The translations under genes were made by a program, and so were the position numbers. Below are positions 6,408 through 44,079 of a stretch of DNA of 64,000 nt, one piece after another (the first letter of the stretch is position 1; each line of letters starts with the position of its first letter). The DNA comes from Nitrosococcus wardiae (GTDB lineage Bacteria; Pseudomonadota; Gammaproteobacteria; Nitrosococcales; Nitrosococcaceae): NCBI RefSeq assembly GCF_004421105.1, contig NZ_CP038033.1, forward strand, positions 1,321,659 to 1,385,658. The letters are read 5' to 3'. The notes under the pieces were generated by a model. The model was not told where the DNA came from, searched no databases, and saw only the letters and a list, made by a program, of their open reading frames with translations.

Positions 6408-7277
6408 ATCACGCTATTTTTCGGTATTGTTTTTCATAGTCCCCTGGGGTCTGATAGCCAATTGCGGAGTGAGGCCTTTGGCGGTTATAAAATACTTCAA
6501 GATATTCAAAAATCTCTTGCTGGGCTTCTGCCCGGGTCAGGTAACGCCGGTGAGGGGTGAGTTCGGTTTTGAGGGTATTAAGTACCTATGAATAAAATAT
6601 GAGGTGTTTTAGGAGCGAGCCGGAGGTGTTCCGCAAACCCGTTTTTCCTCCCTGAAAAAAGGGTTTGCGGGGACTTCCCTGTCCCCTGGCTCCACGCCAC
6701 CGGCTCGCTCCAGGAATGCTTCAAAACTTTCACTGAGATACTTAAAAAAGCGCTCTGCGGGGGCATTGTCGTAGCAGCAGCCCCGACGGCTCATGCTACC
6801 TATAAAGCCATAATCGCTGAGAGTCTTCTGGTCGAGCTCGGAAGACTATTGACGGCCACGATCACTGTGCACAATCAATCCGGGGGCAGGTCGGCGCTTC
6901 CAGATGGCCATCATCAACGCATCGTGAGTGAGTGTAGCGTTGATCCGCGCTGACATGGCCCAGCCCACCACGGCTCGGGAGTAGAGGTCGAGCAAAACGG
7001 CCAAGTCAAGCCAGCCTTCCTCCGTGGGGATGAAGGTGATATCACCGACATACCCCCTATCGGGCCGAGTCGTTTCAAACGCCTGGTTGAATACATTAGG
7101 AGCCGCAGGACGCGTGGGATGGGCTTGGGTGGTGGCCTTGAATTGACGCCGACGCTTGCTCTTGAGCCCCTGCGGTTTCATCAAGCGAGCCACCCACGTA
7201 CGGCTGATGGGTTCGCCCTCGCTTGAGTTCATCATCAAGGTGTTCTTCACCCACCTTCTTTTCCACCGATTGAGCAC
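6408..7277 (-). pseudogene. IS3 OrfB integrase-type transposase, broken
   Basis: The integrase core is recognisable. The segment TRPDRGYVGDITFIPTEEG holds the first Asp, IVHSDRG the second, and RPHSAIGYQTP follows the Glu region. There is a frameshift just after HSDRG. The C-terminal part (NTLKTELTPHRRYL... to QYRKIA) is separated from CYDNAPAERFF by the inserted MITE. No active transposase can be made. Confidence 0.85.
6578..6745. mobile_element. 160-bp MITE with TTAA target duplication
   Basis: The element (6582-6741) interrupts the IS3 OrfB and is flanked on both sides by TTAA (6578-6581 and 6742-6745). Removing it with one TTAA restores the transposase frame (...ERFF-NTLKTE...). It has about 45-base imperfect terminal inverted repeats ending in GAGCGAGCCGG. 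Internally there is a hairpin from CCGCAAACCCGTTTTT and its complement. It encodes nothing. A partial second copy is at 23269. Confidence 0.8.
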
Positions 7278-7434
7278 AATGATACTTGCCTATCCAGGTA
7301 GGCAGGGTGTTCTTGTTGACCCCTAACTCTTCGGCGGTCTTGCTGAACGGCTGCTCACTCTCTACTGCCAGCTTCACCGCTCGCGCTTTAAATTCCGCGG
7401 TATACTGACTCGCTTTCTTCTCGGTATTCATCAC
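7260..7434 (-). pseudogene. IS3 OrfA (helix-turn-helix), truncated
   Basis: MMNTEKKASQYTAEFKARAV... is the start of an IS3-type OrfA with HTH segment FSKTAEELGVNKNTLPTWI. After about 52 residues the frame passes into sequence that, read in another frame, is OrfB. The leucine-zipper end of OrfA and the start of OrfB have therefore been deleted. Confidence 0.8.
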
Positions 7435-7500
7435 AACACACTTTCCTCATTTTGTCTTTAAGATGACTTGAGTTCGTGTGTCCGGAATAGTCTAGCCACT

Positions 7501-7713
7501 TCAAATTTTCGGAGCAAACAAGCCAAAGTTGGCCACATTGTTGGCCGCGGTGATATCTAAGGACTGAAACTGGTTAATTTGCTGGTTCAAGTTGATATCC
7601 ACACCTACATTGGCAAAACTCGACCCGGGAAAAGCTCCGAGAGTTTTACCGCCCCGCAGGGCAGTCATTTGCGTCCGATCCAGCGTTGTGCTTTCGGGCA
7701 AATCGGCAATCAT
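7501..7713 (-). CDS. Small peptide with Arg-Gly-Gly leader, copy 1
   Basis: A 70-residue peptide. Its N-terminal 22 residues match a leader also seen in the next gene and at 43792: IADLPESTTLDRTQMTALRGG, with the pattern I-x-D-L-x-E-x-x-T-L-D and then A-(V/L/I)-R-G-G. The remainder is Asn/Gln-rich (LNQQINQFQ) and ends with NNVANFG as in copy 2, then LFAPKI. The double-Gly position resembles leaders cut by export-linked C39-type peptidases or removed in RiPP maturation; that is inference. The product is unknown. The IS3 end lies about 3 bases after the stop, so the original C terminus may have been lost. Confidence 0.65.
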   Translation of the reverse strand: MIADLPESTTLDRTQMTALRGGKTLGAFPGSSFANVGVDINLNQQINQFQSLDITAANNVANFGLFAPKI

Positions 7714-7793
7714 CAGGGAAGCCCTCTCTTTTTCCTCTTGATGGAAGGAGGCCCGCAGACCCCCCGATACGTTGTTAACGACTGTGTTTGGGA

Positions 7794-8081
7794 TTACAGC
7801 CAGCCGCCTACATTGACGTTGTTCTGAGCCTGCTGGTTCTGGTGGTTGGTGTTGTCGAGATTTGAGAACCCAAAGTTGGCCACATTATTCCCCACGGCAT
7901 TTTGAATACCCTGGAACTGGGAAATGGCCTGGGTGGGGTTCACCTGCACGAACGGGTCCCCCATAGGACCCCAGTAGAGGCTCTGCTTCCCAAAGGTCCG
8001 CATACCCCCGCGAACCGCCGTCATGGCAGAATGGTCGAGGGTCTTGTTCTCGGTCAGGTCAGCGATACGCAGTGGGCTCAT
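7794..8081 (-). CDS. Small peptide with Arg-Gly-Gly leader, copy 2
   Basis: A 95-residue peptide, preceded by a good ribosome site (GAGGAA). The leader RIADLTENKTLDHSAMTAVRGG is followed by a core rich in Asn, Gln, Gly and Phe: QAISQFQGIQNAVGNNVANFG, then an Asn/Gln tail ending NVNVGGWL. QFQ and NNVANFG are shared with copy 1, which follows 80 bases downstream on the same strand, so the pair arose by tandem duplication. No Cys is present, so lanthipeptide- or disulfide-type chemistry is unlikely. The function is unknown; no modifying enzyme or transporter lies nearby. Confidence 0.7.
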   Translation of the reverse strand: MSPLRIADLTENKTLDHSAMTAVRGGMRTFGKQSLYWGPMGDPFVQVNPTQAISQFQGIQNAVGNNVANFGFSNLDNTNHQNQQAQNNVNVGGWL

Positions 8082-8433
8082 GGTCTATTTCCTCTTCAAT
8101 ACAGTGAATGGGTAGGGTTTTAAATGGGGGCACCGACGCGTCATTGTCTCGGTGCTTACCCCACTATTGCAGGGCTCATGCCAAGGGGGTAGGGGAGGGG
8201 GATAATCAAAAACAAGCCACTGATTCTAAAATAAAAGTAGATTCACCGAGACCTCCAGCGCTCGTGTCTCCTCCAGAGTCGGCCCTCGAAAAGTGGGTTT
8301 GAACCCCACAAAAATTTAAGCCGTGTGGGTGATTATCGTGATTTAGCGCCATGCGGGTTGAGGTGGGGGATTGAGGCGTGTTACGTGCCAGTACGTAATG
8401 GCGGTACAGTCCCAAACCGGGATGATTCCCAAC
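8082..8433. other. Intergenic leader region of the peptide pair
   Basis: There is no convincing gene in these 352 bases. GGCACCGA and TCGGTGC (about 8128-8155) form an inverted repeat upstream of copy 2 that would fold in its 5' leader. The remainder is unremarkable. Confidence 0.45.
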
Positions 8434-8991
8434 TCATAGCCATGGCCTAGGGTCTATCTCTTCCTCATATCTATCGAGCCTCGATGGCCGTTTGGGTGCG
8501 AGTCCATTTTTGGACACTAACCAATTTATCCTATCAGCGTTCCAACGTAGCCCCGCGGGGGTACGATAGCCGCATTTGTTGAGGATATTGGCTATATGCC
8601 TTCTATCCTTGCCTTGGCATATGAGGTTGATAACGAATTGAATGAGTCGGGTTTCGTTCTCTTGGTAGGGTTTGAGTGGGTGTTTATCACGGCGTCGTGA
8701 TACTTTATCTAACTCGGGTTCAGTGTCCGGTCCAGGAGAGGATAAGTCCATTTGCTCCTCAGCCGTTGGGGGTTTTTCCTTTGGCTTGGGTTTGGCTTTC
8801 GGGATCTCGGTTAGGTAGGGAGATTGACCCTCGCGCACTATAGACACGGCCCCATCATGCATGTGCAGGTATGCAGTAGTCATATCAAGCGCCTGCTCGT
8901 AGGTGTATCCTTGCCGCTGAAACCGAGCAATGGTGTCCTTGCGCAGCTTAAGCCATGCTTGGAGATCATAGTCACTGCCTTTTCCTCTCAT
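8434..8991 (-). CDS. Hypothetical protein with recombinase-like C terminus
   Basis: A 185-residue protein with no confident family. The N-terminal third is charged and helical (LQAWLKLRKDTIARFQRQGYTYEQAL). A Pro/Lys-rich linker (KAKPKPKEKPPTAEE) follows. The last 70 residues contain the pattern IANILNKCGYRTPAGLRWNA, which resembles the segment found in the large-serine-recombinase 'Recombinase' domain. No catalytic Ser domain is present. It may be a DNA-binding accessory protein or a fragment. Its start overlaps the end of the broken upstream gene by 20 nt, suggesting a former operon. Confidence 0.55.
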   Translation of the reverse strand: MRGKGSDYDLQAWLKLRKDTIARFQRQGYTYEQALDMTTAYLHMHDGAVSIVREGQSPYLTEIPKAKPKPKEKPPTAEEQMDLSSPGPDTEPELDKVSRRRDKHPLKPYQENETRLIQFVINLICQGKDRRHIANILNKCGYRTPAGLRWNADRINWLVSKNGLAPKRPSRLDRYEEEIDPRPWL

Positions 8992-9307
8992 CTCTTAATC
9001 CCCGCACTAATTTGGCTGCAAAATTGCTGTATTCTCTGATAATGACTTTATAGCTTATCCCCGTGTACTCGGCTAGCGTCTCCGCTGCTTTATGAGTATC
9101 TATTTCTAGATACAGACCAGAGTAAGCCTCAATAATTCTAGGTATCGCTTCATCAAGCTTTTTCTCAATAAGTTCCCGTTTCCTCTTTTCCTCAATCGTC
9201 CGAGAGTGCTAATTCCCGCTTTTGTTTCTGTTCAAAATTTCGTCGCCGCTCGCATGTCAAAGCCTCAACTTCGCTCTAGGAGGTGCAGAATTGGACTCTA
9301 GTGCCAT
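8972..9307 (-). pseudogene. Frameshifted hypothetical gene upstream of 8991
   Basis: Reading the minus strand from the ATG at 9307, three frames joined by two shifts give one continuous charged helical protein. It begins MALESNSAPPRA, continues EALTCERRRNFEQKQKREL, then RTIEEKRKRELIEKKLDEA, and ends KLVRGLRDERKRQ at 8972. A helix-turn-helix-like segment (HKAAETLAEYTGISYKVIIR) is visible. No single frame has a start and covers it all. The family is unknown. Confidence 0.5.
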
Positions 9308-9387
9308 GGTTCTATGCCTCCAGTGGGTGATTATAGAGCTTGGAGGAAGAGGAGAATGATAGAGAGAGGACAAGAGTAATTAACTGA

Positions 9388-10530
9388 TACTAATTTGCAT
9401 TACAAGAAGTAATTCTCATATAAGGGAAGTCAGTGAGGGAGCGGAGGCGATGGGGTTCATCGGCGAGCTGATTGAGGCCGGTGCAGAGTGTATTTTCCAG
9501 ATCTTCAAGCGAGGAGAAGGAGGTGTTAGCCAACGTTTTCTCTCGTAGCTCTTCCCAAAGATGCTCGACCGGGTTGAGTCCGGGCTGCGGGCCGGCTGAG
9601 GGACTAAGTGGATGTTCTCGGGCACGCTTAACCGGGGGGTGGTATGCCAACCGGCGCGGTCGACAAGCATAATAATAAAGTACTCGGAGAATTCCTGAGC
9701 CACCTGCGCCAGAAACAAGGCCATCCTCTCGGTATTGGCCGTGGGCAGCAGTAACGCCGTTAAACGCCCCAACGGCGCACACACCGCGGCAAAGACATAG
9801 ACAAACTCTCGTATCACCTGACAGGGGACATGAGGCCGAACGGGCTGGGGCGCCCAACCGCGCCGGGGGCGATCGATGCGGCCAAAACGCCCCTCATCCT
9901 GGGCCATTACGATGACCGGACGCCGGTCCTGCGGGTCGCGCTCTTGCAGGAGGGTTTGGACCGGGGAGGGGAAGTTGTTTTAAAGGCGTCTTGTTCGCTC
10001 CGACTGGCCTGCGGGTGACGGACTTTGCGCCACCGGTGGCGCTTGAGAAGGCGATAGACGGTACTTTTGGCTACTGGATGACCCACATCGCTTCCTCCAG
10101 GGCCGCTTTGAGGGGGAGAACGGTACTGAGTTGACCCGCCGCACTGCTTTGCAGGAAGGGAGCGATGACCGCCTGTTCCTGCTCGAGGCTGAGATAGGCC
10201 CGTTGTCGTTGGCCGCGGCCCGGGGTCTCTAACGCCGCCGGCCCGTGGCGGTTATAGGCGGCAATCAGGTTGTGGACCGTTTGCCGGGCTAACCCCAGCT
10301 CCAGGGCAATTTCCGCCGCCGGCTTGGGGTGGACCAACGCGCAACGGATCACTTGCCAGCGTCGGAGACGCCACGATTCGGTACAGTGCTTGAGCCGCTC
10401 ATCCATTTCTTCAACCCGCAAATGCTCAACGACCCGGGTGACCCTTCCCATCTTCTCTCTCCACTGGACAGATTCGATAAGCCAACACCTTCCCCTCTTT
10501 TTATTTTACTTTATAGATTGCAAATTGGTA
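9388..10530 (-). mobile_element. IS630-family insertion sequence, inactive
   Basis: The ends are C(T/C)AATTTGCA inverted repeats flanked by TA on both sides (9388-9389 and 10529-10530), as expected for IS630. Immediately outside are CTGA and TCAG, so the original site was the palindrome CTGATATCAG. The single transposase gene is broken in at least three places. The right end lies inside the PEP-synthase-like remnant at codon context EAVYGL. The left flank is not PEP-synthase sequence, so more than this insertion was involved. Confidence 0.82.
9390..10451 (-). pseudogene. IS630 transposase, multiply frameshifted
   Basis: The N-terminal HTH reads AAEIALELGLARQTVHNLIA, then a second HTH GHPVAKSTVYRLLKRHRW in another frame. 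The DDE catalytic domain follows in VIVMAQDEGRFGR (first Asp), IIMLVDRAGWH (second Asp) and, in a third frame, GLNPVEHLWEEL (Glu). Frame changes fall near 10080, 9985 and 9600. All catalytic residues survive, but no intact protein can be produced. Confidence 0.85.
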
Positions 10531-43034: not shown

Positions 43035-43791
43035 AGAAAACTCTCAAAAAAATGATATAACTGCCCGACATTCTTGTTAGAAATGCCAGTGGGTAGAACT
43101 GAGTATTGCAGGGCGAACGAGTTGGAGCAGAAATGAATTCGGAAGGAAAGACAAAAACTACTACGCTAACACGAAAACGCGATCCTTAATACTCTAGCGC
43201 TTTGTATCATAGGAGACTGAGGGGACAATTACAAGTTCAAAATGAGGTTCATGTTGCTCATGCAGATCCCTTCTGCAATATATTCTCGATTAAACCGTTT
43301 GCGCCCGCAATGACTAACTTGAGCAAAACGAATTCCTTTCAGGATTTCTGTTGTTGACCTGGGTCAGTTCTATAGTTGGGTGAAGGTGAAGATATCAAAT
43401 CAAGGTTTTTCTTCTCAGAATTCTCTCATTCCCAGCTTATTTTCCGCCCCCTTGCTCTGAAAAAAAGCGAGGAAAGGACAGAAAAGATAAGATTATATAA
43501 ATCAGGTCTTTAGTTATGGTTTGGCTTTCTACTCCTTCTTTTGCCCCAGACGGTGACCTCCTTCTGAGTGGGATAAGGGGGTGTTTTGTTGCTAAAAGGC
43601 AAGTAGGCCTAGATTGACTGTTATTTATAAACCAACATTTGCCTAGTCATTGCTTCTTGCGGTAAGAGAAGGGTTAGTTTTTTATCTATAATACAGTGAC
43701 TTATATTTTTTTGAGAAACTGATAAAAATGGCGCACTTTATGCAAAATATTTGAGTAAAATTGGGATGATTTATCGAGCAGGAGAAAATCA
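43035..43791. other. Long intergenic region before the third Arg-Gly-Gly peptide
   Basis: No convincing gene is seen in these 757 bases. The part next to 43034 probably holds the long 5' leader typical of cold-shock genes. The part next to 43791 is A/T-rich and should contain the promoter of the peptide gene. No tRNA, repeat or phage site is recognised. Confidence 0.5.
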
Positions 43792-44079
43792 ATGGCAATC
43801 ATTACTATCAGAGATTTGAATGAAAGCAGAACTTTGGATCCCCAGGAGAGAGCTGCGATACGTGGCGGTTGGCTGTGGGGCTGGATTGTCCCCTACCGCC
43901 AGGGAAGCCAAAGGGGTTTTCCTTTACAAGTCAACCAGTATTTCCGGGTTAACCAGTACTTTGCAGATCAAATTCAGATCGTGAACCAAAATCAGGTAGT
44001 CAGCATCATCGACTCTGCCGGAGCTAATGTGTCCTTGGACGAGGACAGCATTAACACCATTAACTTACCTGCAGCTTAA
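43792..44079 (+). CDS. Small peptide with Arg-Gly-Gly leader, copy 3
   Basis: A 95-residue peptide preceded by CAGGAGA. The leader TIRDLNESRTLDPQERAAIRGG matches the I-x-D-L-x-E-x-x-T-L-D / R-G-G pattern of the two peptides near 7.6-8.0 kb. The core is different but again Asn/Gln-rich with aromatic residues: WLWGWIVPYRQGSQRG, then QVNQYFRVNQYF and QIVNQNQVVSI. It has no Cys. The core ends with an acidic stretch (SLDEDSINTINLPAA). The function is unknown. A frameshifted Crp/Fnr regulator follows it. Confidence 0.72.
   Translation: MAIITIRDLNESRTLDPQERAAIRGGWLWGWIVPYRQGSQRGFPLQVNQYFRVNQYFADQIQIVNQNQVVSIIDSAGANVSLDEDSINTINLPAA

What the first reader, a model, noticed from the sequence alone, without database searches (positions are those of the whole stretch)
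7501..8081. Tandem pair of small peptides sharing an Arg-Gly-Gly leader
Two adjacent genes encode 70- and 95-residue peptides. Their first ~22 residues share the pattern I-A-D-L-x-E-x-x-T-L-D-x-x-x-M-T-A-(L/V)-R-G-G, while the cores differ. This leader/core contrast is how exported bacteriocins and RiPP precursors look. The peptides lack Cys and no modification enzyme is adjacent, so they do not fit common classes. Seen directly: the motif and the duplication. Inferred: cleavage after Gly-Gly and export.
Basis: partly seen in the sequence, partly recalled or inferred. Interest (0 to 1): 0.82.

Follow-up and report, generated by a model that had tools for sequence, protein, structure and literature searches.

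The report
Secreted peptide pair, exporter now broken
Two neighbouring small genes encode precursors of peptides made to be cut at a Gly-Gly signal and exported by a dedicated, sigma-54-controlled secretion machine found in scattered beta- and gammaproteobacteria; in this strain that machine is disrupted by mutations and one of the two genes is damaged, so the pair looks like a recently orphaned part of a little-known secretion system.

Summary
The two peptides (A, 95 aa; B, 70 aa) and the Arg-Gly-Gly leader are real, but 'the cores differ' is wrong: A and B are paralogues sharing a core (Q-x-I-x-Q-F-Q...N-N-V-A-N-F-G). The unit sigma-54 promoter + A + B recurs in this genome and in one sister species; two other genomes of the genus have none. 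The same leader heads 16 ORFs here, 16 in the sister, and 6-18 in Noviherbaspirillum, Thiogranum and an Oxalobacteraceae MAG, where several lie beside an exporter operon (OEP, FHA, HlyD, PpiC, cNMP-C39-ABC, sigma-54 activator). Lead genes mostly carry TGGCAC-N5-YTGC 80-130 nt upstream. Among 369 sampled Gammaproteobacteria, the exporter's PpiC protein and multiple leaders mark the same three genomes. So 'exported GG-leader precursors' is well supported; but in this strain the exporter, 1.29 Mb away, carries frameshifts and nonsense codons, and gene B lost its original start and was cut by an IS element. Closest known: cyanobacterial group I bacteriocin clusters (HlyD + SurA + long-type C39 ABC). 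What the cores do (microcin, matrix subunit, signal) is unresolved.

The parts
7794..8081 (-). Gene A: 95-aa GG-leader precursor (stop codon included)
   Evidence: ORF; 60-76% identical paralogues at several loci in own genome and sister species; dN/dS 0.05-0.21 for five orthologous A pairs
8004..8081 (-). Leader of A, residues 1-26, ending RGG; hydrophobic at -4 (V), -7 (M), -12 (L)
   Evidence: alignments A2 and A6; leader HMM hits
7797..8003 (-). Core of A, 69 aa, no Cys, 32% Asn+Gln
7501..7713 (-). Gene B: 70-aa GG-leader precursor, damaged: ancestral start ATG is AGG, C-terminus truncated by an IS element
7648..7713 (-). Leader of B as read from the present start (22 residues, ends RGG)
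8168..8183 (-). Sigma-54 promoter TGGCATGAGCCCTGCA, 102 nt before the start codon of A
8305..8329 (.). Candidate activator site: dyad CCCACA-N13-TGTGGG, at the position where most sibling copies have CAACA...TGTTG
6609..7503 (-). IS3-type element remnant (rve, HTH_Tnp_1) whose end at 7503 truncates gene B; left limit approximate
43792..44079 (+). Type C GG-leader precursor (95 aa, core WxWIxPY...), third leader in the window
43729..43744 (+). Weaker sigma-54-like site TGGCGCACTTTATGCA, 63 nt before the type C gene

Best explanation
A and B are a co-transcribed pair of precursor peptides of a sigma-54-controlled, PCAT-type type I secretion system. An activator encoded with the exporter, probably tied to the Ser/Thr kinase, PP2C and FHA proteins of the same cluster, switches on sigma-54 promoters in front of many scattered A-B units. 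The leaders dock in the C39 domain of the cNMP-C39-ABC exporter and are cut after Gly-Gly. The unmodified cores leave the cell through the HlyD adaptor and the OEP channel, with the PpiC-like protein assisting. Shown by sequence: leader, paralogy of the cores, promoters, co-occurrence, operon, selection. Inferred: cleavage, export, the regulatory chain. In this strain the exporter has several inactivating mutations and B is truncated, so this copy is most likely a recently orphaned relic of a system intact in its sister species. What the cores do outside the cell is open: I put about 0.4 on a microcin-like effector, 0.35 on a matrix or adhesive subunit, 0.15 on a signal.
For: Leader HMM hits 16 ORFs in the own genome, 16 in G001, 0 in four other genomes of the genus or family, and 6-18 in the five genomes found through the PpiC-like protein. 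C39 ABC exporter of about 1,030-1,050 aa intact in G001, G219 and G252, none in G002 and G003; intact in four of the five named genomes, a longer 1,151-aa C39 frame in the fifth. Catalytic Cys, His, Asp region aligns with solved PCAT1 and ComA. In a sample of 369 Gammaproteobacteria, PpiC at E < 1e-100 and two or more strong leaders occur in the same three genomes. Leaders lie beside the operon in Noviherbaspirillum and Thiogranum and beside the PP2C/VWA/kinase part of the cluster in G252. Sigma-54 sites without mismatch precede 12 of 14 A genes of the two Nitrosococcus-type genomes (one more has one mismatch) and most distant lead genes, versus 4 of 352 control ORFs. A and B core HMMs reach betaproteobacterial cores above all shuffles. 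dN/dS 0.05-0.21. Lesions in this strain: HlyD E271 stop, PpiC Q181 stop, ABC +1 and -1 frameshifts and a TAG at codon 591, two FHA frameshifts, a split Sel1-caspase gene.
Against: The exporter is not adjacent to the window pair (about 1.29 Mb away) and is disrupted here. Two A copies in this genome have RGE or RGD instead of RGG. G261 has a leader peptide with a sigma-54 site but no C39 protein. No experiment shows cleavage or export. The link of the sigma-54 promoters to this particular activator rests on co-location and on a dyad found only in the two Nitrosococcus-type genomes. AlphaFold models of A and B are of low confidence (pLDDT about 46) and say nothing.
Confidence: 0.82

Rival explanations
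1. The cores are a two-peptide class II microcin or bacteriocin that kills competitors.
For: GG leader plus C39 exporter is the microcin route; A and B types are paired in several taxa; the same leader also heads a Gly-rich microcin-like core near 3.815 Mb.
Against: The unit conserved between loci runs only from about -165 to +660 and contains no immunity gene. Cores are Asn/Gln-rich and under strong purifying selection over many near-identical copies. No activity data.
Confidence: 0.4
2. The cores are secreted structural subunits (matrix fibre or adhesin), A and B acting as two kinds of subunit.
For: Asn/Gln 22-32% in full-length cores; alternating patterns such as NVNVNVTLNQQI in the betaproteobacterial B type; strong purifying selection; gene multiplicity; an autotransporter-type outer-membrane barrel conserved in the cluster.
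Against: No Pfam or NCBIfam match, curlin included; no confident structure.
Confidence: 0.35
3. The cores are secreted signalling peptides.
For: GG-leader peptides exported by PCATs include pheromones such as ComC (established knowledge); the cluster contains kinase, phosphatase and FHA proteins.
Against: Cores of 48-70 aa and many near-identical copies are unusual for pheromones; no receptor is linked to the pairs.
Confidence: 0.15
4. The shared N-terminus is part of a folded intracellular domain and the Gly-Gly is incidental.
For: Two copies lack the second Gly; no export shown.
Against: The leader is shared by otherwise different cores (types A, B, C, D, Pro-rich, Gly-rich), follows the exporter across genomes and lies beside it.
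Confidence: 0.06

Closest known systems
Cyanobacterial group I bacteriocin clusters (long-type C39 ABC transporter + HlyD + SurA/rotamase; Wang et al. 2011, PMC3140520)
   Same: Exporter core: C39 ABC transporter with an N-terminal extension of about 300 aa (here two cNMP domains), HlyD, and a rotamase-type protein, with GG-leader precursors nearby
   Different: Here sigma-54 promoters, a sigma-54 activator, kinase/PP2C/FHA/VWA/Sel1-caspase neighbours, scattered A-B units, and a leader (LDxxAMxxVRGG) without the Glu residues of the consensus quoted there
Colicin V-type class II microcins and other Gram-negative GG-leader peptides (Dirix et al. 2004 as cited in PMC3140520)
   Same: Short unmodified precursor, GG leader, C39 ABC + HlyD + outer-membrane channel
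   Different: No adjacent immunity gene, paired Asn/Gln-rich cores, exporter encoded away from most precursors in the Nitrosococcus-type genomes
HetC of Nostoc (cNMP + C39 ABC exporter; PMC10986499)
   Same: cNMP domain fused to an active C39 ABC exporter
   Different: HetC acts in heterocyst development, has no known substrate and no adaptor gene nearby; here an adaptor and candidate substrates are in view
NHLP/Nif11 leader RiPP systems
   Same: GG leader and C39 exporter
   Different: No NHLP or Nif11 match to the leader, no maturase near the pairs; exporter scores below the NHLM cut-off

Membership tests
GG-leader substrates of C39 (PCAT) exporters | Leader ending Gly-Gly with hydrophobic residues at -4, -7 and -12 | tested here: met
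   A2 and A6 alignments: L-12 and both Gly invariant, M/L-7 nearly so
GG-leader substrates of C39 (PCAT) exporters | Cognate C39 ABC exporter with catalytic residues in the same genome | tested here: inconclusive
   Intact in G001, G219, G252 and four of the five named genomes; in the window's own genome present but disrupted
GG-leader substrates of C39 (PCAT) exporters | Precursor genes linked to the exporter | tested here: met
   Met in Noviherbaspirillum, Thiogranum and G252; not at the window locus itself
GG-leader substrates of C39 (PCAT) exporters | Cleavage after Gly-Gly and export | not testable with these tools
   needs biochemistry or mass spectrometry
Class II microcins | Immunity gene next to the precursor | tested here: not met
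   Conserved unit holds only promoter, A and B
Class II microcins | Antibacterial activity | not testable with these tools
   no activity data
RiPPs with modified cores (NHLP, Nif11, lanthipeptides) | Known leader family or adjacent modification enzyme | tested here: not met
   No Pfam or NCBIfam match; neighbours are transposases, a recombinase-like fragment and unrelated genes
Cyanobacterial group I bacteriocin clusters | Long-type C39 ABC + HlyD + rotamase protein in one operon | tested here: met
   Architecture in L067-L069 and L073 compared with PMC3140520
Cyanobacterial group I bacteriocin clusters | Leader consensus M(R/K)ELX3E(I/L)X2(I/V)XG(G/A) | tested here: not met
   Hydrophobic spacing fits, both Glu positions do not

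The most novel reading that the evidence does not exclude
A sigma-54-regulated multi-peptide secretion regulon of beta- and gammaproteobacteria: many scattered small genes share one leader and one promoter type and feed one cNMP-C39-ABC exporter whose cluster also encodes a Ser/Thr kinase, PP2C, FHA/VWA proteins, a Sel1-caspase lipoprotein and an outer-membrane barrel, with A and B cores acting together outside the cell.
Probability: 0.4. Interest if true: 0.75.

Novelty: new variant of a known kind. Interest (0 to 1): 0.6.

Why it matters
It links many unannotated small genes to a specific exporter and promoter in bacteria where GG-leader peptides are little studied, gives a testable regulon (promoter + leader), and offers a natural comparison in one genus: system intact, disrupted, or absent. 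Searches of the open-access library found no description of a sigma-54-controlled GG-leader system; papers outside that library were not searched.

Tried and rejected
Pfam and NCBIfam on A and B: only chance matches. Viral contigs and the first genome-contig scan with A/B: nothing. Plasmids: one weak match over 31 residues, E = 0.3. AlphaFold of A and B: pLDDT about 46, so no fold search was run. First sigma-54 pattern scan over distant loci used a faulty spacing and was redone. A genome-wide sigma-54 pattern scan gave 70 sites, mostly unrelated. HlyD 'codon 12' TAA lies before the start codon and is not a lesion. The resemblance of NNVANFG to flagellar rod signatures, recalled from memory, was dropped: no Pfam match.

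Full report
Observation. The two minus-strand ORFs exist at the stated places: B at 7501-7713 (70 aa) and A at 7794-8081 (95 aa), both with a leader ending Arg-Gly-Gly. A third leader lies at 43792-44079 +. A and B are not two unrelated cores behind one leader. Aligned with their relatives they share Q-x-I-x-Q-F-Q and N-N-V-A-N-F-G in the core, and a core-only HMM of A finds every B core at E = 8e-8 to 3e-6, above all shuffled controls. B is damaged: intact copies begin at an ATG that reads AGG here, leaving a start four codons further on, and about the last 16 residues are missing because an IS3-type element begins at 7503 and supplies the stop. The same element end occurs at two other places of the genome, one identical and one with a mismatch, after different flanking sequence.

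A repeated unit. The own genome (G000, one contig of 4.02 Mb) holds seven A genes, one of them truncated, and four B genes; G001 of the same genus holds seven A and three B genes, while G002 and G003 of the genus and the other relatives among 59 genomes searched have none. DNA comparison of the loci shows what is copied: from about 165 nt before A to the end of B, about 660 nt after the start of A, and little else, so no immunity gene travels with it. Orthologous A and B pairs between G000 and G001 have dN/dS 0.05-0.21. Two A copies in G000 read RGE or RGD where their G001 orthologues read RGG.

Promoter. A genes carry TGGCAC-N5-(C/A)TGC about 100 nt before the start codon, the window copy TGGCATGAGCCCTGCA at 8168-8183; B genes have none of their own. 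Among 352 other ORFs of the same loci only 4 have a site as good. A dyad CAACA...TGTTG lies about 145 nt further upstream in most copies of the two Nitrosococcus-type genomes; the window copy has CCCACA-N13-TGTGGG at the same place. Lead genes of arrays in Thiogranum, Noviherbaspirillum, an Oxalobacteraceae MAG, G219 and G252 carry sigma-54 sites 79-133 nt before the start, some with one mismatch; L048, L071_B, L076_D, G001_6A and most inner genes of arrays do not.

Exporter. PF03412 (C39) is absent from G002, G003 and G004, with one weak below-cut-off hit in G005, and present as open frames of 1,029-1,052 aa in G001, G219 and G252. In G001 the operon reads OEP, FHA protein, HlyD, PpiC-like protein (related to TIGR04500, below cut-off), cNMP-cNMP-C39-ABC, sigma-54 activator, then PP2C on the other strand. 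Its C39 domain aligns with PCAT1 and ComA of the PDB, the DCGAAC, His and ADP regions included. GG-leader genes of the same leader lie beside the operon in L071, L072 and L073, beside the partial PpiC match in L076, and beside PP2C in G252. Noviherbaspirillum and the Oxalobacteraceae MAG have both A-like and B-like cores; B-like cores are recognised at E = 5e-6 to 3e-3 and the L076 A-like cores at 5e-4 to 0.014, all above the shuffles. The L071 and L072 A-like cores were not recognised by the A core HMM, so their A label rests on alignment and leader only.

Co-occurrence. In 369 sampled Gammaproteobacteria the PpiC-like protein at E < 1e-100 occurs in G000, G219 and G252 (four further genomes have weak hits near 1e-25), and leaders with several strong hits occur in the same three. 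G261 is an exception: one leader ORF at E = 7e-7 with a sigma-54 site but no C39 protein. The leader HMM was built from members of these genomes, so their high counts are partly by construction; the zeros and the additional members found carry the weight. Genomes reached through the PpiC probe carry 6-18 leaders.

State in this strain. Compared with G001 the own operon has HlyD Glu271 to stop, PpiC Gln181 to stop, two compensating frameshifts in the ABC gene that scramble the C39 domain from just before its His to beyond its Asp, a TAG at codon 591, two frameshifts in the FHA gene, and a Sel1-caspase gene in three pieces; OEP, PP2C and the activator are open. Frameshifts alone could be sequencing errors; the three nonsense substitutions are hard to explain that way. 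I therefore read the window pair as orphaned, and cannot say for how long.

Cluster. Homologues of a Ser/Thr kinase, PP2C, a VWA-FHA protein, a Sel1 plus caspase-domain protein and an autotransporter-type barrel sit around the operon or the peptides in G000 and G252, and most of them also in G001 and G219 as far as the stretches read.

Function. Established knowledge says C39 exporters cut after Gly-Gly and export the rest; that step is inferred here. Nothing in the data decides between a two-peptide microcin, a matrix subunit and a signal. Absence of an immunity gene and strong purifying selection weigh against a microcin; core diversity across the regulon and a Gly-rich core near 3.815 Mb weigh for it.

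Identity of the genomes. From memory the size of G001's contig recalls Nitrosococcus halophilus, and G000 may be N. wardiae; this was not tested.

Noticed in passing
L050:5555-9204 (G000:C1 about 1039554-1043203): A stand-alone C39 peptidase with an N-terminal hydrophobic segment beside a barrel-like protein and small signal-peptide proteins carrying LTDVQMDNVTAG-type motifs, reminiscent of a Fap-like amyloid operon; a second such peptidase is at G001:C2:147239.
   Followed up: partly
L137:1375-1782 (G000:C1 about 3815 kb): A further GG-leader pair: a Pro-rich short core with a sigma-54 site at -117, followed by a Gly-rich core (SLAIGGLVGGITAAALGEKVGETAAKLW...) that looks microcin-like.
   Followed up: partly
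L067:404-3070, L068:12530-15172, L051:9390-12383: A Sel1-repeat plus caspase-domain (PF00656) protein with a lipoprotein-like N-terminus lies next to the exporter cluster in three genomes; it is split in the window's own genome.
   Followed up: partly
L067:3185-4603, L051:5895-7223, L054:373-1863: An autotransporter-type outer-membrane barrel (PF03797) near the peptides or exporter in several genomes, in G219 divergent from a peptide gene.
   Followed up: partly
L070:5325-10512 (G252:C101): A second, NHLP-like exporter pair (C39 ABC plus ABC without C39) in G252, separate from the system described.
   Followed up: no
L140:1132-1338 (G261:C122): A GG-leader ORF with a good sigma-54 site in a 99%-complete genome with no C39 protein: perhaps another orphan.
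   Followed up: partly
window 8434-10451: Fragments of a recombinase-like gene (PF07508, just below cut-off) and of a DDE_3/IS630-type transposase upstream of the pair.
   Followed up: no
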